Positions 32,055 through 41,570 of a stretch of 64,000 nucleotides of DNA are shown piece by piece. The notes below the pieces were generated by a model. The model did no database searches and was not told where the DNA came from. It was given only the letters and a program-made list of their open reading frames with translations. This stretch comes from Acidobacteriota bacterium. Lineage in GTDB: Bacteria > Acidobacteriota > Terriglobia > Bryobacterales > Bryobacteraceae. Both the position numbers and the translations under genes were made by a program. Location of the stretch: contig JACPNQ010000014.1 in NCBI GenBank assembly GCA_016185425.1, forward strand, positions 1 to 64,000. The letters run 5' to 3'. Each line of letters starts with the position of its first letter. Within the stretch, counting starts at the first letter, position 1.

Positions 32055-35000
32055 ATGCGGCTTGCAGCGTCTGCAGGGGTGCTTCTATTTGCGCTTGCTT
32101 TCCCGGGGTGTGGGACGGCAGCCGTTTATATTGATGAGGCCAAAGTCCGGGCCGAGTTAAGAGACGGGAAGACGGTGATCGTGCTTCCTGCGGAGAATAG
32201 TGGCAGCCGGGCAGTCGGGGCGAGTGTGTTTGCCGAATGGCTGAGCCCGAAAGACTCCACTTTGGGCGAGGCGAGGGTTGCGGTGCGGATTGAACGTGGG
32301 CGGTCGGAGATCATTGTTCCGCTGGCGTTGCGGTTTCCATCGATCTGGACGAGACTGCGATACACGGTGGATCCGGAGCGGGCGGACGCAGGGATATTCG
32401 GGCGTATTCAGTCGACGCTCCCGCTGGCGCGAATTGCGGAGCACGTCTTTACGGTGCGGACGGATTTGGCGGGCAGACCGCGGCCGGGAGCGCCGGTGAC
32501 CGTGTATGCCCGGGCGGAGCATCCGGTGACTAAGAAGGCGGTAAAAGCTGTGGCGTGGAATGCAGTATTGGCAGTTGGAAAGAAGAGCATCAAGCCAAAC
32601 GATGTGACGGCGTTGGACGCTGAATTCTCCGCGTTTACGTTTGCCGTTCCAGAGGATGCGGAATCGTTGGAGGTATTGGTTACGGGAAGTAGTGGCGACT
32701 TCGCGCAGGATGCCCGGGTGGAAGTGCAAATAGAAGAGAAGCCGGCGGTGAAGGTGCAGACCGATAAGCCGATCTACCAACCAGGGCAGACGATCCATTT
32801 CCGTGCGCTGGTGCACGATGCGCGAGGCAAAGCCGCGGCGGGCGCGAAGGTTGCATTGCACATCGACGATCCGGAAAACGAACGCGCGCTCACAAGGGAA
32901 TTGACTGCATCGCGGTTTGGCGTGGTGCAGGCTGATTACGCGCTTCCGGAGCGGGCGGTGCCGGGGGTGTACCGGATGCGAGTGCGGATGGATGACGACG
33001 AGATCGGCCATCACGCGGTACAGGTGAAGCGGTACGAACTGCCGGCGTTTCGTGTGTTGGCGAAGAGCGAAAAATCCGCGTATTTGGCTGGTGAAAAGGC
33101 GTATGCGGTTGTATCGGGCGAGTATCTATTTGGCAAGCCTGTGCCGCGTGGCGCCGTAAAGATTGTGCGGACCGAGAATCCGCACTGGAACCGGGAGACG
33201 AGGAAGTACGAGTCAAACGAGAAGACGGTTGCGGAGGGAGTGGCGGGAGAAGACGGGAAGTTTCGGGCGGAAGTCCCCGCGCCAATTGATCCGGAACGAG
33301 AGGGGCGTTACGAGGACTTGCATTTCGCGGCATACGTGAAAGACCCGTCATCCGGCCGTTCCGAGCAAAGGCGGTTCGATGTGCGGATCTCGAAGGAGCC
33401 GGTGCATGTCTATCTGCATCCGGGACTGGGAGGCGGATCGCTTCCATTTGCGGCATATGTCTCGACATACCGGGCGGACGGAAGTCCCGTTCCGGCGAGC
33501 GTGGAAATTGTTTCGGACGGGAAGACAGAGCAAGTCCAGACGAATCGTTATGGGGTTGGGAAAGTGTACCTGCGGCCAAGGGAGAGCGGGGAGCTCAAGC
33601 TGCGGGCAGTAACCGCCGAGGGCGGCGCCGGTACGTTGACTGAACCATGGCTGGCGTACCAGGGCCGCGCATGGCGAATGACGGCGCAGCGGACGATTCA
33701 CCGAGTTGGGGAGGCTGTGACACTCCGGCTAACGGCCCCCGCGTCCGCCGCCGAGGGCGAAACGGTGATGGTTCATGCCATTGCGGGAGGGCGGCGTGTG
33801 GCGAGCCGCGTGGTCCAGATGCGTGGGCGGACGGGAGAGGTAGTGTTTCCGAATCAGCGCGAATTCCGACGCGTCGTGACGTTCCTGGCGGCGGGAGCGA
33901 GTGAACTGGGTTCGTGCAACACCATATTTCCGGATGGAAGCGATCTGGCAATGGAGGTTAAGACCGATAAGACCGTGTACCGGCCAGGGGAGAAGGCGAC
34001 GGTGCAGTTGAAGGTTTTGAACGCCGATGGCAGCGGAGAGGAGGCGGCGCTGGGATTGGCGATAGTGGATCGGAGCGTGATGGAACGGGCGCGAACGGAT
34101 TCCGAATTCGGTCAGCGGCCCTGGTTCGGATGCGCCTTTTGTGCCGATCAGGGGGAGTTTGAGATGGGCGGCGTGCGGGTGAACGATCTATTTCACCTAA
34201 AGAGTTGGACGGCGGAGTTGGACCTGGTTGCCGAGGCGCTGGTAGCGGGCGGAATGGGAGGATTGGCGCAGAATTCTAGTGAGGATTGGGATACGCCCCC
34301 ACAGTTTGCCAGCATCCTAACGCATGAGAAGGCGGCGAGGGAGATGGTCGAACGGTATTATGCCGTGACGATTGAATTTCCCAGGGATATCGCGACATTC
34401 TATGCGGCGATTGGGAGGGTTGGCTGGGATTTCCGGGATCCGTGGGGCACTGCCTACAAACCTGCGTTCAGCGTGGACGGAACGAATTATGTGATTACGA
34501 TTGGCAGTGCCGGGCCGGATAAGCGACATGGCACAGCGGATGACTTCGTTGCGTTTACACTGCAAAAACAGTATTTTTTGCCGCTGCGCGCGATGATTCA
34601 TGCAGCGTTGATGAAGGGTGGGGACTATCCGGCGACGGCGGAGGGCTTCGCGGAGGAGTTGAAGGAGAGCGGGTTATTGTTCGCTTTGTTGCGAGACCCT
34701 TGGGGTACACCGTACCGGGCAGGGGTTTCGACGCGCGGGATTATGCGATCGATAGAGATGCGGAGTGCCGGGCCCGACGGGGCATTCGGCACATCCGATG
34801 ACGTTGTTGTCGAGACGTTTCACGGAACGTACTTCGAGAAGGAAAGAACGCGGATAGAAGCCGCGGTGCGGTCCGCAGTGCAGCCGCCTCAGACGCTGGA
34901 GGCGTTTGAGGCCGTGCTGCGGAGCGCGGGCATTTCAGTTGAGTCTTATCGAGACGCGTGGGGGAATCGCTACCGCGCGGCGAGTACGATTCGCAGCGAA

Positions 35001-37670
35001 TACCGGGACAAAACGAATACGCGTATTGTCGGCGATTTCGGGCAGCCGGGAACGGTGGTCCGCGAGATTGTTCCCGTCACCCAGAAGATCATCACGTTCG
35101 CACTGCGCAGCCGGGGCGAAGACGGCACCGAGGGTACATACGATGATTTCGACGTCGTGCGAATTCCGGTGATTATGTCGACGGAATCGGCGGGCGGAGA
35201 TCAGCAGACGCCGCAAAAGGGGGAGTTGTTAAAGGGAACCGGTGGAATCTCCGGCGTCGTGACGGACGCAAGCGGCGCGGTTGTCCCTGGTACGAAAGTG
35301 ACGCTGGTCGCCGCGTCAGGCGCGGAGTTTGAGACGGAGACCGGACCGGATGGCGTGTACCACTTCCTTTCCGTCCCGGCCGGTGTCTATACGGTGCGAA
35401 TGAGCAATACAGGATTTATGCTCCGCGAGATTGCTCGCGTGCCCGTTGTGGAGGGGAAAACGACGGCTGCCGACGCTGAGCTGCAGGTGGGGAGCGTCAC
35501 GCAGATGGTTGCGGTGGAGGCGGAGGCCACCTTGCTGCAAACGTCGACGAGTTCGATGGTTGCTTTGTCTGCCGCGACGGCGACGCCGCGGGTGCGGGAG
35601 TATTTTCCGGAGACGCTGCTGTGGTTGCCGGAGGTGACCACCGACGCGAATGGGCGGGCGAAAGTGGAGGTGCCTCTAGCGGATTCAGTGACGACATGGC
35701 AGATGGCGCTGTTCGCATCGACGCGGGATGGGCGGTGGGTAGACGGCGCGGGGGACATTCGCGCCTTTCAGCCGTTCTTTCTGGACTTTGTGCCGCCCGC
35801 CGTGTTGACGGAGGGAGACCGCGTGGAGATGCCGGTGACGGTTCGGAACTACGAGACGAACGCGCAGAAGTTGGGCTTGCGGTTTGAGGCGGGAGATTGG
35901 GCGAACGTATCCGGACCGGCTGCGAGCTCGGTAACGGTTCGAGCGGGCGAGAGTGCGAATACCGTTTTTGCCGTGACCGCGGTGAAGACAAGAGACAATG
36001 CGACAGCAACGATTACGGCGCGAACGGCTCGCGGCGGAGACGCGATCAAGAAGCCGCTGCAGGTGCATCCAGACGGACAAAAGCGCACGCAGATTCACGG
36101 CGGAATGCTGGGAGGCGGAATGACGATGCTGGCGACGGTTTCTCAAGACGCGATTCGAACAGCGACGCGCGGAGAGTTGCGACTATACTCGAATCATGCG
36201 TCGCTGATTTGGGAGAGCGCGGGCAGCATCGATCGTATGCCTCATGCCTGTGCGGAACAGACGATTTCGGCGGGGATGGCGAGCTTCATTGCGTTGCGGT
36301 TCGCACGGGCTACGGGAATCAAAGATACGAAGCGGGAAGAACTGGCACTGCGAAGCGTGCGGGATACCGTGGCGGATTTGCTGGCGCGGATAAACGGCGA
36401 CGGCGGCGTGCCCTACTGGCCGCGGGAAGAGAGCGATCCGGCGGTGACCGCGCACGCATTACAGTTTCTGTTGGAAGCGAGAGGAATAGCCACGGTAGAC
36501 GAGGACGTCCTCAATGAGATGGCTGCGTGGCTTGCCGGGAAACAGAGTGAGGATGGGCAATGGAAGGTGCAGGGGCGTGATAGCGAGACGCGATCGTTGT
36601 TGCTGACTGCCCTGGCCGCGCGGGCACTGGCGGCCGCGACGAACGCGGGCATTTCCGTACGCGAAGGGACCTTGGGCAGCGCATATCACCACTTGGCCAG
36701 GTTCACGATGGAGTACGGAGAACCATACACGCTGGCGCAGTTTGTCCTGGCGGCGTTAGACACTGGCGACGACGCGCTTGCGGCCAATGGGGTTGCACGG
36801 CTACTGGCGGGTGCGCGGAAAGAGAGGGACGGCCTGTATTGGGATTTGCGAGCGAACACGCCATTCTTTGGATGGGGTGCCGCGGGACGGTTGGAGACAA
36901 CAGGGTTGGCAGTGAGCGCGCTGGCGGCGTGGCGGGCGAAGCATGCGGAGGACAAGGCAGCGGAGGCGGCGATCCAGGGCGGCGTGATGTTCCTGCTGCG
37001 CAACCGGGATCAGTGGGGTGGTTGGTTTTCGACGCAGGCCACAGTGCGGTCCATGCGGGCGGTTGCCGATTCCGTAGAGGGAAAGTGGGCTGTTAGCGAT
37101 TCCAGCGCCGAGGCGCGGATCATTGCCGGCGGAAAGGCGGTGAAGGCCGTGCCGCTCCAGGGAGTGGATCCGATTATTGTGGACATTTCCGCATACCTGC
37201 AGCCGGGGGAGAACCGCGTCGAAGTATCGGGACGTACGGGAACGCTCGCGCGGTTGACGGTAGACGAGTGGGTGCCATGGACAAAGGCCGAGCGCCAAGC
37301 GAATCCGGAGTTGCGGATGTCGGTCACGTTCAACCGTGTTGCGATGAGTGTGGGGGAGGCAGTACGTTGCTCCGTGCGCGCGGAGCGAGTGGGCTTCCGG
37401 GGATATGGAATGATGATGGCGGAAGTGGGTCTGCCGCCGGGAGTGGATGTGGACCGGTCGTCGCTGGAGGCACTACCAGTGGGCCGGTATGAGGTGCTGC
37501 CGGACCGCGTGCTATTTTACCTTTGGCCGCAGGCCGGAGGGATCGCGTTCGATTTCCTCGTGAGCCCGCGAATGCGCATGGCGGCAAAGACAGGTGCATC
37601 AACGCTGTATGACTACTACAATCCGGAGGCGCTGACGGAGGTTGCGCCGGTGCAGTGGACGGTACAATGA
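32055..37670 (+). CDS. Alpha-2-macroglobulin family protein with replaced bait region
   Basis: A 1,871-residue exported protein; GGGAGGGG precedes the ATG. The N-terminus ends in FPGC, a weak lipobox. MG domains include VQTDKPIYQPGQTIHFRALV near 235 and, again, MEVKTDKTVYRPGEKATVQL near 640. After LAIVDRSVMERA (about 668) the usual bait region is replaced by about 500 residues. These hold three pseudopilin-like repeats (RDPWGTAYKP near 794; RDPWGTPYRAG near 880; RDAWGNRYRA near 965), each followed by a GTxDD loop, then a carboxypeptidase-regulatory module (GISGVVTDASGAVVPGTKVT near 1062) with a TonB-receptor-like linker. The A2M domain resumes with YFPETLLWLPEVTTDANGRA near 1182. The thioester CAEQ is at C1399. 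Such proteins trap proteases covalently. Confidence 0.9.
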   Translation: MRLAASAGVLLFALAFPGCGTAAVYIDEAKVRAELRDGKTVIVLPAENSGSRAVGASVFAEWLSPKDSTLGEARVAVRIERGRSEIIVPLALRFPSIWTRLRYTVDPERADAGIFGRIQSTLPLARIAEHVFTVRTDLAGRPRPGAPVTVYARAEHPVTKKAVKAVAWNAVLAVGKKSIKPNDVTALDAEFSAFTFAVPEDAESLEVLVTGSSGDFAQDARVEVQIEEKPAVKVQTDKPIYQPGQTIHFRALVHDARGKAAAGAKVALHIDDPENERALTRELTASRFGVVQADYALPERAVPGVYRMRVRMDDDEIGHHAVQVKRYELPAFRVLAKSEKSAYLAGEKAYAVVSGEYLFGKPVPRGAVKIVRTENPHWNRETRKYESNEKTVAEGVAGEDGKFRAEVPAPIDPEREGRYEDLHFAAYVKDPSSGRSEQRRFDVRISKEPVHVYLHPGLGGGSLPFAAYVSTYRADGSPVPASVEIVSDGKTEQVQTNRYGVGKVYLRPRESGELKLRAVTAEGGAGTLTEPWLAYQGRAWRMTAQRTIHRVGEAVTLRLTAPASAAEGETVMVHAIAGGRRVASRVVQMRGRTGEVVFPNQREFRRVVTFLAAGASELGSCNTIFPDGSDLAMEVKTDKTVYRPGEKATVQLKVLNADGSGEEAALGLAIVDRSVMERARTDSEFGQRPWFGCAFCADQGEFEMGGVRVNDLFHLKSWTAELDLVAEALVAGGMGGLAQNSSEDWDTPPQFASILTHEKAAREMVERYYAVTIEFPRDIATFYAAIGRVGWDFRDPWGTAYKPAFSVDGTNYVITIGSAGPDKRHGTADDFVAFTLQKQYFLPLRAMIHAALMKGGDYPATAEGFAEELKESGLLFALLRDPWGTPYRAGVSTRGIMRSIEMRSAGPDGAFGTSDDVVVETFHGTYFEKERTRIEAAVRSAVQPPQTLEAFEAVLRSAGISVESYRDAWGNRYRAASTIRSEYRDKTNTRIVGDFGQPGTVVREIVPVTQKIITFALRSRGEDGTEGTYDDFDVVRIPVIMSTESAGGDQQTPQKGELLKGTGGISGVVTDASGAVVPGTKVTLVAASGAEFETETGPDGVYHFLSVPAGVYTVRMSNTGFMLREIARVPVVEGKTTAADAELQVGSVTQMVAVEAEATLLQTSTSSMVALSAATATPRVREYFPETLLWLPEVTTDANGRAKVEVPLADSVTTWQMALFASTRDGRWVDGAGDIRAFQPFFLDFVPPAVLTEGDRVEMPVTVRNYETNAQKLGLRFEAGDWANVSGPAASSVTVRAGESANTVFAVTAVKTRDNATATITARTARGGDAIKKPLQVHPDGQKRTQIHGGMLGGGMTMLATVSQDAIRTATRGELRLYSNHASLIWESAGSIDRMPHACAEQTISAGMASFIALRFARATGIKDTKREELALRSVRDTVADLLARINGDGGVPYWPREESDPAVTAHALQFLLEARGIATVDEDVLNEMAAWLAGKQSEDGQWKVQGRDSETRSLLLTALAARALAAATNAGISVREGTLGSAYHHLARFTMEYGEPYTLAQFVLAALDTGDDALAANGVARLLAGARKERDGLYWDLRANTPFFGWGAAGRLETTGLAVSALAAWRAKHAEDKAAEAAIQGGVMFLLRNRDQWGGWFSTQATVRSMRAVADSVEGKWAVSDSSAEARIIAGGKAVKAVPLQGVDPIIVDISAYLQPGENRVEVSGRTGTLARLTVDEWVPWTKAERQANPELRMSVTFNRVAMSVGEAVRCSVRAERVGFRGYGMMMAEVGLPPGVDVDRSSLEALPVGRYEVLPDRVLFYLWPQAGGIAFDFLVSPRMRMAAKTGASTLYDYYNPEALTEVAPVQWTVQ

Positions 37671-37679
37671 TTCGATAGT

Positions 37680-40600
37680 GTGTCGAGCGTTGCCGTAGTC
37701 GCAGAAAAACCGTCCGTGGCTCGCGATTTAGCGAAGGTCCTGGGCGCCACGCAGAAGGGCGATGGATTTTTACACGGGGGCGGGTATGTTGTCACCTGGG
37801 CGATCGGCCATTTGGTGGCACTGGCGCAACCGCATGAGATCCGGCCGGAGTGGAAGCAATGGCGGCGGAACCTGCTGCCGATGCTGCCGGCCGAATGGCC
37901 GCTGGTAGTTTACGACAAAACGAAAGACCAGTTTGAAACGGTCCGCAAGATTCTGAATTCGCCGAAGGTAGAACGGATCATCTGCGCGACGGACGCGGGG
38001 CGGGAGGGAGAGTTGATCTTCCGCTATATCTATGATGCCTCCGGAAGTTCGAAGCCGGTGGAGCGGTTGTGGATATCGTCGCTAACGGCGGATGCGATCC
38101 GCGAGGGATTTGCGTCTTTGAGGAACGCACGGGAGTACGACGGCCTGGGGCAAGCCGCACGAGGGCGCTCGCGCGCGGACTGGCTGGTGGGGATGAATCT
38201 GTCGCGGGCCTATTCACTGGCGTTCAACGAGGAGTTGTCCGTCGGTCGCGTGCAGACACCGACACTGGCGATGATCGTCGAGCGGGAGTTGGCGGTGCGC
38301 GCGTTTGTGCCGGAGGAGTACCGCGAAGTAGTGGTTACTTTCTCACCCCGGGGCGTGGCTGGGAAGCCGGCATATAACGGCACGTGGTTCCGCAGGCCGC
38401 TGCCCAAGGGCGAGACCGTGCAACAGGCGATGCGGCTTCCCGCCGAGACCGGCGATGCGAAGGAGATTGTCGCGCGGGCGAAGACGGGCGAGGCACGGAT
38501 TGCTTCGATTGAATCCGAGCAGAAAAAGATGGGGCCGCCACCGCTGTACGATTTGGCGGAGTTACAACGGCACGCGAACCGGTTGTATGGATACAGCGCG
38601 CAGAAGACGCTCGATATTGCGCAGAAGCTGTATGAGGCGCACAAGCTGATCAGCTATCCACGAACCGACAGCCGGCACCTCTCGCGGACTGTGGCGGCGG
38701 GGCTGCCGGGAGTGGTGCGCGTTGTTGGCCCGCAGTACGCGAAGCTGCTGGCGCCCGGTACGGGCGAGCGGCCGTTGGGACCGAAGTATGTGGACGACGC
38801 GAAGATCTCCGATCACCACGCGATTATTCCAACGGTGACGCCGCCGGCCAAGGCCAGCTTGAGCGAGGAGGAGCGCCGGATCTACGACCTGGTTTGCAGG
38901 CGTCTGCTGGCGGCATGGCATGACGATTACCTCACCGAGGTGACGACGGTGATCACGACGATAACGAATGGGGAGTTAGTGGATTCCTATCATTCGACGG
39001 GAACGGTCGTCCGGCAAATGGGGTGGAAGGTGCTGGATATCGTCATCGAGAAGAAGGGAAAAGACAAAGAGCCGGCCGAGCAGACGCTGCCGTTGGAACT
39101 GCGTCCGGACCAGTTGCAGGACGTTGTGAAGGCGGAGTCCGTACTGAAGAAGACGCGGCCGCCGAAACGATTCACCGACGCGACGCTGCTGACGGCGATG
39201 CAGACGGCGGGCAAGACGTTGGATGAGAAAGAGCTGTCGGATGCGATGAAGGAGAGCGGGCTGGGCACGCCGGCGACGCGGGCGGCGATTATCGAGGTTT
39301 TGCTGAAGCGCAGTTATGTGGAGCGGCAGGCGAAGGCGCTGGCGGCGACCGATAAGGGGATTCACCTGATCGCCGTTGTTCATCCGGAGGTGAAGAGTCC
39401 GGTGATGACCGGGCAATGGGAGGCCCGGCTGAAGCGGATCGAGCGGGGCGAGGCGGAGTTGGCGCCGTTTATGGAGGGAATTGAGGAGTACGTGCGGGAT
39501 GTGGTGGGGAAAGTGGGAACAGCGCCTCGCGCGGCCGCGGCGCCCGCTCCGGTTGCCGGGACGCGGGAAGTGCCTTTGCCACTGAAGACGACGGCGAAGG
39601 ACCTCCCTGCGTTGCTGCACGAGGCATTCGGATTTGCGGAGTTCCGGCCGAGCCAGGAGGCGGTTTGCCGCGCGGTTGTCGATGGAAAAGACGTGCTGCT
39701 TGTGATGCCGACGGGATCGGGCAAGTCGTTGTGCTACCAGTTGCCGGGGCTGGCGCGGGGTGGGACGACGCTCGTCATCAGTCCTCTCATTGCTCTGATG
39801 GAAGACCAGGTGGCAAAGCTTCGGGAGCGGGGTTTTGCGGTGGAGCGGATTCATTCCGGGCGGGATCGCGCGGCTTCGCGGCAGGCTTGTATCGACTACC
39901 TGGAGGGCAGGCTACAGTTTTTGTTCATCGCCCCGGAGCGGTTGCGTGTGCCCGGGTTTCCGGAGATGCTGGCAAAGCGCAAGCCGTCCCTTGTGGCTGT
40001 CGACGAGGCGCATTGTATTTCTCAATGGGGGCACGACTTCCGGCCGGATTACCGCACGCTGGGCCACCACGTTCCGTCGCTGCGGCCGGCACCCGTGATC
40101 GCCATGACGGCAACTGCTACGCCGATTGTGCAGAATGACATTGCGCGGCAACTGGGGCTGGTGGAAGGAGGCCGGTTCATTCAGGGCTTCCGGCGGGAGA
40201 ACATTGCGATTGAAGTTGTGGAGGCGGCGCCGGGAGAGCGGTCCGGGCTTGTGTTGGAGTTGCTGGGCGATGAGGAGCGGCGCCCTGCAATTGTGTATGC
40301 GCCAACGCGGCGGCAGGCGGAGGAACTGGCGGCCGACTTGAAAGGAGCGATGCCCGCGGCGTCATACCATGCGGGGCTAAAAGCGGACGTCAGGCAGCGC
40401 GTGCAGGAAGCGTTCCTTGGCGGCAATCTGCAGGTGATTGTGGCGACGATTGCGTTTGGAATGGGAATTGACAAGCCGAACGTGAGAACCGTGGTTCACA
40501 CGGCGCTGCCGGGGAGCGTGGAAGGGTATTACCAGGAGATCGGGCGCGCCGGGAGAGATGGGCAACCGTCACGAGCGGTGTTGATGCACTCGTACGCGGA

Positions 40601-41570
40601 CCGGCATACGCACGATTATTTCTTTGAGCGGGACTATCCACCGGTGCCCGTTCTGGCGAGCATTTTCAAGGTGCTGACAGAGGATCCGCAGCCGAAGGAT
40701 GCGCTGGGGAAGCGGGTGCGGCTGGATGAAGAGGCGTTCGACAAGGCGCTGGAAAAGCTATGGATTCACGGCGGCGCGATGGTGGACTTCGCGGAGAATG
40801 TGACAAAGGGAAGGGCGGAGTGGCACGCTCCGTACGAGGCGCAAATCGCGCAGAAGACGGAGCAGTTGCAGATGATGCTGCGCTACGCCGACAACAGCCA
40901 GTGCCGGATGTGCGCGCTGGTGGCGCATTTTGGGGATCGGGCGGGGGCGATGAAGCCGTGCGGTATTTGCGATTTCTGCGCACCTGATTCCTGCGAGGCA
41001 CAATTGTTCCGTGATGCGACGGCACGGGAGTTGGGTATCTCGCGGGACGTGTTGCAAGCACTGCGAAAAGCGGATGGGCGATCGTCGGGGAAATTGCACG
41101 CGGAAGTTTGTGGCGCGGTTGTAGACCGGGATGGATTTGAGCAGGTGCTGAGTGCAATGGCGCGGGCGGGTTTGGTGGAATTGCGCGAGGAGACGTTCAC
41201 CGCGGAGGGACGGGAGATCGCGTTCCGCCGCGTGCTGTTGTTAAGAGGGCCCGACGACTATACCTTGTTGATCAAGGAACGGCCTGAGCGAAAGCGTTCG
41301 ACGAAGCGCAGAGCGGCACCGGCGAAGAAGGCCCGGAAGCGGGCGACGGTTGAAGACCCTGCTGTCGAGGCGCTGAAAAGTTGGCGACTGACGCAGGCCA
41401 AGAAGGAGGGCGTGCCGGCGTTCCGGGTCATGACGGATAAGGTACTGGAAGAGATCGCCGGTGAGCGCCCGGCCGACGAAGAAGAGCTGGCGCAGATTGC
41501 GGGAGTGGGGCCACGATTAGTGAGCCGGCATGGGGCGGCTATCCTGCGCGTGCTGCGAAAGGGGAATTGA
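37680..41570 (+). CDS. DNA topoisomerase III - RecQ helicase fusion
   Basis: A GTG start nine bases after the macroglobulin stop gives 1,296 residues. Residues 1-620 form a complete topoisomerase III: TOPRIM AEKPSVARDL and ICATDAGREGELIF (Gly where many topoisomerases have the second Asp), and SYPRTDSRHL with catalytic Y326. A short Ala/Pro linker (about 620-635) leads to RecQ: FRPSQEAVCRAVVDGKDVLL, Walker A MPTGSGKS (K682), DEAHCISQWGHDFRPDYR (D775), MTATAT, and motif VI QEIGRAGRDG. The RecQ zinc site follows (QCRMCALVAHFGD; CGICDFC), then a winged helix. After a Lys/Arg-rich linker a C-terminal HRDC domain ends the protein. Expected role: dissolution of recombination intermediates by coupled unwinding and strand passage. 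Confidence 0.92.
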   Translation: MSSVAVVAEKPSVARDLAKVLGATQKGDGFLHGGGYVVTWAIGHLVALAQPHEIRPEWKQWRRNLLPMLPAEWPLVVYDKTKDQFETVRKILNSPKVERIICATDAGREGELIFRYIYDASGSSKPVERLWISSLTADAIREGFASLRNAREYDGLGQAARGRSRADWLVGMNLSRAYSLAFNEELSVGRVQTPTLAMIVERELAVRAFVPEEYREVVVTFSPRGVAGKPAYNGTWFRRPLPKGETVQQAMRLPAETGDAKEIVARAKTGEARIASIESEQKKMGPPPLYDLAELQRHANRLYGYSAQKTLDIAQKLYEAHKLISYPRTDSRHLSRTVAAGLPGVVRVVGPQYAKLLAPGTGERPLGPKYVDDAKISDHHAIIPTVTPPAKASLSEEERRIYDLVCRRLLAAWHDDYLTEVTTVITTITNGELVDSYHSTGTVVRQMGWKVLDIVIEKKGKDKEPAEQTLPLELRPDQLQDVVKAESVLKKTRPPKRFTDATLLTAMQTAGKTLDEKELSDAMKESGLGTPATRAAIIEVLLKRSYVERQAKALAATDKGIHLIAVVHPEVKSPVMTGQWEARLKRIERGEAELAPFMEGIEEYVRDVVGKVGTAPRAAAAPAPVAGTREVPLPLKTTAKDLPALLHEAFGFAEFRPSQEAVCRAVVDGKDVLLVMPTGSGKSLCYQLPGLARGGTTLVISPLIALMEDQVAKLRERGFAVERIHSGRDRAASRQACIDYLEGRLQFLFIAPERLRVPGFPEMLAKRKPSLVAVDEAHCISQWGHDFRPDYRTLGHHVPSLRPAPVIAMTATATPIVQNDIARQLGLVEGGRFIQGFRRENIAIEVVEAAPGERSGLVLELLGDEERRPAIVYAPTRRQAEELAADLKGAMPAASYHAGLKADVRQRVQEAFLGGNLQVIVATIAFGMGIDKPNVRTVVHTALPGSVEGYYQEIGRAGRDGQPSRAVLMHSYADRHTHDYFFERDYPPVPVLASIFKVLTEDPQPKDALGKRVRLDEEAFDKALEKLWIHGGAMVDFAENVTKGRAEWHAPYEAQIAQKTEQLQMMLRYADNSQCRMCALVAHFGDRAGAMKPCGICDFCAPDSCEAQLFRDATARELGISRDVLQALRKADGRSSGKLHAEVCGAVVDRDGFEQVLSAMARAGLVELREETFTAEGREIAFRRVLLLRGPDDYTLLIKERPERKRSTKRRAAPAKKARKRATVEDPAVEALKSWRLTQAKKEGVPAFRVMTDKVLEEIAGERPADEEELAQIAGVGPRLVSRHGAAILRVLRKGN

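What the first reader, a model, noticed from the sequence alone, without database searches (positions are those of the whole stretch)
34100..35600. Macroglobulin bait region replaced by pseudopilin-like repeats and a receptor-like module
In alpha-2-macroglobulins the protease-cleaved bait lies between the VDxSVL strand and the YFPETxxW strand. Here these anchors are at about residues 668 and 1182, and the roughly 500 residues between hold three repeats of RD.WGxxY plus SxGxDGxxGTxDD, the calcium-loop signature of GspG-type pseudopilins. A carboxypeptidase-regulatory module with the TonB-receptor linker (VGSVTQMVAVEAEATLLQTS) follows. The thioester CAEQ is intact. The bait may present decoys of the cell's own secretion and receptor proteins to attacking proteases.
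Basis: partly seen in the sequence, partly recalled or inferred. Interest (0 to 1): 0.85.

Follow-up and report, generated by a model that had tools for sequence, protein, structure and literature searches.

The report
Macroglobulin with domain cassette beside bait
This soil-bacterium protein resembles the protease traps of animal blood, but next to its probable trigger loop it carries a conserved block of domains related to secretion pseudopilins and nutrient receptors, much as complement proteins carry an extra domain at the same spot.

Summary
ORF 32055-37670 encodes a 1871-residue thioester macroglobulin. Between its MG6 anchors (VDRSVM 671, YFPETLLW 1183) lie three GspG-like repeats (Pfam T2SSG) and a CarboxypepD_reg (CPD) domain. 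The cassette is old: 53 usable homologues from 78 fetched loci, 51 labelled Acidobacteriota, carry three repeats and CPD at the same site.

It does not replace the bait. Repeats and CPD are predicted folded. The likely bait is residues 1148-1182, between CPD and YFPET: disordered in the model, adjoining the strand that follows the bait in human A2M, variable in length (28-117), and the least conserved segment pairwise (below core and repeats in 20 of 20 pairs). In 20 of 54 family members it is recognisably TonB-receptor plug sequence. I read CPD plus bait as one ancient receptor capture, since eroded; in the window too little is left to be significant alone.

It most likely works as a snap-trap with a passenger cassette, formally like anaphylatoxin in C3 or LDLa in MCR. 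Maintained decoy mimicry is not supported: macroglobulin CPDs group mostly with each other, not with own-genome receptors. The cassette's role is unknown. New variant of a known kind.

The parts
32055..37670 (+). whole macroglobulin gene, 1871 aa, P0001
   Evidence: single intact ORF
32754..33023 (+). MG2 domain, residues 234-323
   Evidence: Pfam PF01835 82.3 bits
33699..34082 (+). A2M_BRD match (MG5/MG6a), residues 549-676, ending in the VDRSVM anchor 671-676
   Evidence: Pfam PF07703 30.3 bits; anchor position
34083..34307 (+). link1, residues 677-751: segment after MG6a with short low-confidence patches (683-687, 693-700, 738-746)
   Evidence: alignment; AF2
34308..34571 (+). GspG-like repeat 1, residues 752-839
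   Evidence: repeat profile E 3.4e-25 (profile built partly from it); AF2; the best match to solved GspG falls here
34578..34832 (+). GspG-like repeat 2, residues 842-926
   Evidence: Pfam T2SSG best stretch 873-916
34836..35162 (+). GspG-like repeat 3, residues 928-1036, with long beta strands
   Evidence: repeat profile E 5.7e-21; AF2
35163..35240 (+). link2, residues 1037-1062
   Evidence: low pLDDT patch 1048-1055
35241..35495 (+). CarboxypepD_reg (CPD) domain, residues 1063-1147
   Evidence: Pfam PF13620 57.5 bits
35496..35600 (+). link3, residues 1148-1182: predicted true bait; remnant of a TonB-receptor linker and plug
   Evidence: pLDDT about 32; variability; receptor origin shown in homologues, not in the window alone
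35601..35873 (+). MG6b strand YFPETLLW (1183-1190) and A2M domain match 1187-1273
   Evidence: Pfam PF00207 62.5 bits; aligned to human A2M
36222..37067 (+). thioester domain, residues 1390-1671, with CAEQ at 1399-1402 (36249-36260)
   Evidence: Pfam PF07678 53.9 bits
37407..37631 (+). A2M receptor-binding-like domain, residues 1785-1859
   Evidence: Pfam PF07677 27.4 bits

Best explanation
This is a secreted or periplasmic thioester macroglobulin that traps proteases. In the loop between the two halves of MG6, an ancestor gained folded GspG-like domains (here three) and, just before the bait, the N-terminal piece of a TonB-dependent receptor (CPD domain, linker, most of the plug). The receptor linker and plug, presumably disordered outside their barrel, took over as bait and have eroded since, at different rates. 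A protease cuts link3 (1148-1182). Loss of continuity lets the stretch leading into YFPET retract, the thioester domain swings out, and Cys1399-Gln1402 couples to the protease. The folded cassette stays joined to the N-terminal half through link1, as a spacer that presents the bait or as a docking element at the cell envelope. Shown: architecture, site, conservation of the cassette, predicted disorder and fast evolution of link3, and receptor-like link3 in relatives. Inferred: cleavage at link3, trapping, erosion from one capture, and the cassette's role.
For: Domains pass Pfam cut-offs. In the 54 rows (window and 53 homologues) CarboxypepD_reg matches 54 and T2SSG 40 at E<=1e-3; on the repeat piece alone T2SSG matches 47 of 53 rows at E<=0.01. 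The session's own repeat profile, built from these rows, finds three copies in 54 of 54. All 8 PDB sequences matched by the repeat profile up to E 1 are GspG or type II pseudopilins. Cassette lengths are near-constant while link3 varies. AF2: repeats mean pLDDT 95.1, link3 about 32. Link3 identity is below the core in 20 of 20 independent pairs, repeats in 20, link1 in 18, CPD in 17 and link2 in 15. Human A2M aligns to the profile from the residues just before YFPET. A profile of 40 receptor post-CPD segments matches link3 in 20 of 54 rows at E<=1e-3 (best 1.4e-20) and in 0 of 1080 shuffles. TKSG-like plug motifs occur in 9 of 54 link3s against 0.11 expected. CPD tree: 4 label changes against 30.7 shuffled, and one clade is not rejected (p-AU 0.496). 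CxEQ in 50 of 54 rows, 1 without, 3 not covered.
Against: No biochemistry. The AF2 model has pTM 0.49, so the placement of the cassette relative to the MG domains is unknown. Foldseek on the repeats found no PDB match at E<=0.001 and no GspG among the 50 rows shown, so GspG kinship rests on sequence. Link1 and link2 also hold low-confidence patches that could be cut. Column by column, over the columns present in the window, link3 is not less conserved than other segments (top-residue frequency 0.49 against 0.33-0.55 in the other segments before MG6b); only length and pairwise identity single it out. Link3 of the window is not significantly receptor-like (E 0.45). Three of 40 receptor rows (L168, L169, L184) fell inside the macroglobulin group of the CPD tree, L184 of the own genome in the smallest starred set that holds the window; the tree has few columns. 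In human A2M, lengthening the bait during translation hindered the native form (PMC9352918, passages), so an insert of some 400 residues must be accommodated.
Confidence: 0.7

Rival explanations
1. Decoy bait: the modules mimic the cell's own secretion and receptor proteins so that proteases attacking those are lured and trapped.
For: The modules derive from envelope proteins of the same kind of cell. In 3 of the 6 rows whose own genome was sampled (L131, L095, L099), the best receptor match of link3 came from the same genome, and L099 link3 is 65% identical over 74 aa to such a frame. One own-genome receptor CPD (L184, long branch) groups near the window's CPD.
Against: Repeats and CPD are predicted folded and present in all 54 rows. 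They do not generally track own-genome copies: 23% identity to own GspG, CPDs group mostly among macroglobulins. Link3 is not recognisably receptor-like in 34 of 54. Constrained receptors would stay closest to each decaying bait even after a single capture.
Confidence: 0.08
2. Releasable messenger: cuts in link1 and link3 free the roughly 45-kDa cassette, as anaphylatoxin is freed from C3 (recalled), and it acts as a signal or on the type II system or TonB receptors.
For: Low-confidence patches flank the cassette on its N side (683-687, 693-700, 738-746) and link3 on its C side. The site is the one used by anaphylatoxin in complement and LDLa in MCR (PMC7016707, passage). The cassette is kept in all 54 rows.
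Against: No processing site was identified; no receptor is known; link1 changes more slowly than link3 in 18 of 20 pairs, unlike a bait.
Confidence: 0.12
3. Recurrent bait swapping: link3 is repeatedly replaced by gene conversion from the many TonB receptor genes, diversifying protease specificity.
For: Relatives carry link3s of different receptor types (L095 and L099: core identity 0.68, link3 0.25). Of 19 rows compared, link3 scores higher against a receptor than against any other macroglobulin link3 in 7 (clearly in L095, L099, L118), ties in 1 and is lower in 11, while the CPD scores higher against a macroglobulin in 17 (the other 2 hit L220, probably a macroglobulin itself).
Against: TKSG-like plug ends shared by distant lineages (9 of 54) fit one long capture followed by different deletions, and slow receptors against fast baits give the same score pattern. 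CPDs form nearly one group.
Confidence: 0.2
4. Chance or assembly artefact: motifs or domain fusion without biological reality.
For: Short motifs alone can mislead.
Against: Intact ORF; three repeats and CPD in 53 homologues, two of them from named strains (Granulicella rosea DSM 18704, Bryocella elongata DSM 22489); 0 of 5000 shuffles.
Confidence: 0.01

Closest known systems
Complement C3/C4/C5 (anaphylatoxin domain at the bait site)
   Same: Thioester macroglobulin with a folded domain between MG6a and the stretch that leads into MG6b; the 50 Foldseek rows shown for the whole model are complement or other macroglobulin entries, at low global TM.
   Different: No anaphylatoxin and no C345C domain among Pfam hits up to E 1; the cassette is some 400 residues of GspG-like and CPD domains. 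That C3a is freed is recalled knowledge.
MCR proteins (LDLa in place of anaphylatoxin or bait)
   Same: A receptor-type domain stands at the bait site (PMC7016707, passage).
   Different: MCR has a mutated thioester and C-terminal transmembrane helices according to the same passage; here CxEQ is intact and the only hydrophobic run of 19 residues is the signal peptide.
Bacterial type I A2M (ECAM, Salmonella A2M)
   Same: CxEQ and bait; in bacteria (PMC5764988, passages).
   Different: No bMG10 domain here, whereas macroglobulin L055 of the same bacterial family has it; ends in A2M_recep; a loose lipobox pattern fits 3 of 49 N-termini examined.
GspG major pseudopilin of type II secretion
   Same: DPWGxPY and SxGxDGxxGTxDD region, helix-helix-strands; above the Pfam T2SSG cut-off.
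   Different: Three tandem copies inside another protein, no N-terminal pilin helix; far below the NCBIfam GspG equivalog cut-off (28.8 against 88.85 bits).
Acidobacterial TonB-dependent receptors with N-terminal CPD (OMP_b-brl_4)
   Same: CPD, VGxVxExVxV linker and, in 20 of 54 family members, post-CPD receptor sequence in link3; four such outer-membrane proteins lie in this very window.
   Different: No barrel; in the window only the start of the linker remains.

Membership tests
Thioester alpha-macroglobulin superfamily | MG2, bait-region domain, A2M, TED and receptor-binding domains in order | tested here: met
   all five over Pfam cut-off on the whole protein
Thioester alpha-macroglobulin superfamily | CxEQ thioester motif | tested here: met
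   CAEQ at 1399; family 50 of 54, 1 without, 3 not covered
Thioester alpha-macroglobulin superfamily | protease cleavage of the bait followed by trapping | not testable with these tools
   needs biochemistry
GspG / T2SSG | match to the Pfam T2SSG domain | tested here: met
   37.6 bits on the repeat piece, cut-off 21; 47 of 53 rows match at E<=0.01, 40 of 54 longer rows at E<=1e-3
GspG / T2SSG | GspG equivalog (TIGR01710) | tested here: not met
   28.8 bits, cut-off 88.85
GspG / T2SSG | N-terminal hydrophobic pilin helix before the globular domain | tested here: not met
   the only hydrophobic 19-residue run of the protein starts at residue 8, the signal peptide
GspG / T2SSG | pseudopilin fold | tested here: inconclusive
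   confident model, but Foldseek shows no PDB match at E<=0.001
CarboxypepD_reg domain | Pfam PF13620 | tested here: met
   57.5 bits, cut-off 32.3; 54 of 54 rows
TonB-dependent receptor | outer-membrane barrel | tested here: not met
   no barrel family among the Pfam hits
TonB-dependent receptor | plug-linker sequence in link3 | tested here: inconclusive
   20 of 54 rows at E<=1e-3; the window itself E 0.45
Bacterial type I A2M (ECAM type) | bMG10 domain | tested here: not met
   absent among the window's hits, present in control L055
Bacterial type I A2M (ECAM type) | pbpC partner gene | tested here: inconclusive
   no neighbour common to the 54 loci; largest shared cluster in 8; neighbours read by eye, not searched by family, and many loci have cut flanks
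Complement C3 or MCR | anaphylatoxin or LDLa domain | tested here: not met
   no such Pfam hit up to E 1

The most novel reading that the evidence does not exclude
Acidobacteriota have a complement-like tripwire built from their own envelope machinery: the bait is a captured TonB-receptor plug, renewed or reshaped from receptor genes, and the GspG-like/CPD cassette is an effector or docking module that is unmasked or freed when a foreign protease cuts it, reporting breach of the envelope to the secretion or TonB system.
Probability: 0.12. Interest if true: 0.88.

Novelty: new variant of a known kind. Interest (0 to 1): 0.62.

Why it matters
It shows that bacteria, like animals, put whole folded domains beside the macroglobulin trigger, in their own family and with different domains, so this design arose more than once or is older than thought. 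It also offers a traceable origin for a bait region: receptor plug sequence that seems to be decaying into bait. That makes it possible to ask by experiment what a bait needs beyond being flexible, and what inserted domains do.

Tried and rejected
Rejected: assembly artefact or chance (homologues and shuffles). Rejected: repeats as bait (predicted folded, kept in all 54 rows). Rejected: my own early note that family B lacks the thioester; a too narrow pattern missed GCFEQ, which 12 of 12 carry. An early motif pattern with the wrong spacing was replaced.

Led nowhere: Foldseek with the three-repeat model gave no useful match. With the whole model it returned macroglobulins at low global TM. Gene neighbourhoods showed no universal partner. 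A first try at anchor patterns missed many homologues and was replaced by alignment. A family search with T2SSG over the own genome listed two other genes and did not list the window's repeats, although hmmscan and the profile A3 find them; its first look seems to have passed them over.

Weak points kept in view: the receptor set of 59 holds L220, which lies in a 1971-aa frame and is probably another macroglobulin. Only the four receptors of the window were checked by Pfam; the others are called receptors from size, CPD and plug motifs. The 20 own-genome CPDs in the tree were taken mostly from the top of the hit list, the other 20 from hits to one homologue's link3. One search scored only three candidates a genome, so its counts are lower bounds. 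The genomes overlap. Of 78 loci, 11 had no frame with the YFPET pattern and were dropped, 10 fragments and 4 outgroups were set aside, and L096 was dropped from A3 for an unknown residue.

Full report
WHAT IS THERE. Window 32055-37670 (+) is one intact frame of 1871 residues. Pfam finds, in order, MG2, A2M_BRD (549-676), T2SSG (873-916), CarboxypepD_reg (1065-1144), A2M (1187-1273), TED_complement and A2M_recep, all above the curated cut-offs. The two motif series occur three times each and in none of 5000 shuffles. The interval between A2M_BRD and A2M is 511 residues here. It is 510 in homologue L011, 398 in a second family (L040) and 69 in a macroglobulin without the cassette (L055).

THE REPEATS ARE GspG RELATIVES BY SEQUENCE. 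On the repeat piece T2SSG scores 37.6 bits (cut-off 21), and it matches 47 of 53 rows (window and 52 homologues) at E<=0.01. A profile of the 53 matches 8 PDB sequences up to E 1, all GspG or type II pseudopilins (best 3.5e-4). Against the genome's own GspG, hhalign gives E 2.2e-5 at 23% identity, probability 76%. They are not GspG itself: the equivalog cut-off is missed and there is no pilin helix. AlphaFold2 gives three confident helix-helix-strand domains (mean pLDDT 95.1, pTM 0.83). Foldseek did not link this model to any PDB chain at E<=0.001, which does not help the case. The DPWG aspartate is invariant in all three repeats of 53 rows. The last two aspartates of the loop are 100% in repeat 1, about 90% in repeat 2 and about 84% in repeat 3, so calcium binding is plausible but untested.

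THE CASSETTE IS OLD AND SHARED. A scan of named genomes kept 78 loci. In 67 of them a frame with the YFPET strand was found. After setting aside 10 fragments and 4 outgroups, 53 remained. With the window, 54 of 54 rows have CarboxypepD_reg by Pfam and three repeats by a profile built from the family itself, in the same order and site. By record title 51 of the 53 are Acidobacteriota, among them Granulicella rosea and Bryocella elongata. L093 (labelled Actinomycetota) and L126 (labelled Betaproteobacteria) fall among them and may be mislabelled. In 150 genomes of the window's bacterial family, 10 matches over 1000 bits lie in 9 genomes; the 5 other genomes of the same genus reach only E 1e-14 to 6e-17. 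In 247 genomes across the phylum, 19 carry the repeats at E<=1e-8, not all with all three. Distribution is therefore broad but patchy.

A GRADED SERIES. In the tree of the cores without the insert, family A (the window's) is one clade. Family B (one repeat in 12 of 12; CPD found in 11 of 12) is another and groups with Armatimonadota L135 (one repeat, no CPD) and three Chloroflexota (neither). Family A member L051 shows two repeat matches. All carry CxEQ: B 12 of 12, outgroups 4 of 4, cassette-free family C 5 of 5. Whether A and B gained CPD once or twice is open.

WHERE IS THE BAIT? The stretch between CPD and YFPET (link3, 1148-1182) has what a bait should have. It is the only long stretch of the model with pLDDT near 32. 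Human A2M aligns to the family profile from the residues just before YFPET, next to its bait (position of the human bait recalled). Its length runs from 28 to 117 with SD 17.8, against at most 4.4 for every other cassette segment. In 20 independent pairs with core identity of at least 0.5, link3 identity is below that of the core in 20, repeats in 20, link1 in 18, CPD in 17 and link2 in 15. Against this, the column-wise measure over columns present in the window does not single out link3 (0.49), since it sees only the shared ends. So the cassette lies beside the bait, on its N-terminal side, as anaphylatoxin does in complement (recalled; MCR and anaphylatoxin placement from PMC7016707, passages seen).

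THE BAIT IS A RECEPTOR REMNANT. Link3 of L131 matches many frames of about 1000-1300 aa in six genomes, down to E 8e-11 apart from itself. A profile of 40 receptor segments after the CPD matches 20 of 54 link3s at E<=1e-3, best 1.4e-20; of 1080 shuffles none does (3 at 0.01, 34 at 0.1). Motifs of the plug end (TKSG) stand in 9 of 54 against 0.11 expected. In receptors (seen in 7 of 21 frames, some partial) they lie about 90-100 residues after LPxNGRN where both are found, in baits much closer, which points to internal deletions. The macroglobulin CPDs nearly form one group (4 changes against 30.7; held together the tree is as good, p-AU 0.496). Exceptions: three long-branched receptor rows, L168, L169 and L184, fall among them, and L184, of the window's genome, is in the smallest starred set that holds the window. 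With 11 family B CPDs added, B is one clade and the A group needs 6 changes. I read this as one ancient capture of a receptor N-terminus followed by erosion. Against a single event: of 19 link3s compared, 7 score higher against a receptor than against any other macroglobulin, 1 ties and 11 do not, and L099 reaches 65% identity over 74 aa with a receptor-sized frame of its own genome. Later exchange cannot be excluded. In the window the receptor part has shrunk to a short linker that alone is not significant. Four outer-membrane proteins with this CPD lie in the same window, and one search lists 137 other matches in the genome, all to the CPD region and its flanks (query 1044-1262).

HOW IT WORKS. 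[quoted passage not shown] a break in continuity, not bait sequence, triggers the change (PMC9352918, passages). The same logic fits here: a cut in link3, retraction of the YFPET-side stretch, thioester coupling. This is inference. Of 49 N-termini examined, a loose lipobox pattern fits 3; a hydrophobic start was found in 46. The C-termini that were complete end at the last MG domain, so the protein is likely soluble in the periplasm or outside. The cassette stays on the N-terminal half unless link1 is cut too.

NOVELTY. Eight searches of the open-access library were made; six of them bear on whether this is known. None listed a paper whose title or shown abstract speaks of GspG-like or CPD domains in a macroglobulin; macroglobulin with pseudopilin, and macroglobulin with 'carboxypeptidase regulatory-like domain', returned none. 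Passages were read in PMC9352918, PMC12939704, PMC7016707 and PMC5764988; of the rest only listings were seen. The principle (a domain at the bait site) is known in animals; the domains, the bacterial family and the receptor-derived bait appear new as far as these searches reach.

Noticed in passing
L133, L134, L136 (Chloroflexota), between MG6a and YFPET: Macroglobulins of Chloroflexota carry hydrophobic, transmembrane-like runs inside the bait interval (six in L133, one each in L134 and L136), as if the bait loop itself were anchored in the membrane.
   Followed up: partly
L135 (Armatimonadetes): One GspG-like repeat (E 5.2e-14) without CPD at the same bait site, a possible earlier stage.
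   Followed up: partly
G202 contig C112: Three repeat-bearing frames within about 18 kb, i.e. probably neighbouring copies of this macroglobulin.
   Followed up: no
flanks of L062, L078, L080, L082, L104, L119, L125, L131: A gene that by eye looks like an S9 (DPP IV-like) peptidase lies upstream of the macroglobulin in 8 of 54 loci.
   Followed up: no
window 37680-41570: Next gene, 10 bases downstream: by eye a fusion of topoisomerase III and a RecQ-type helicase in one 1296-aa frame.
   Followed up: no
L099 link3 against G152 contig C44: Bait of this macroglobulin is 65% identical over 74 aa to a receptor-sized frame of the same genome, a candidate for recent exchange.
   Followed up: partly
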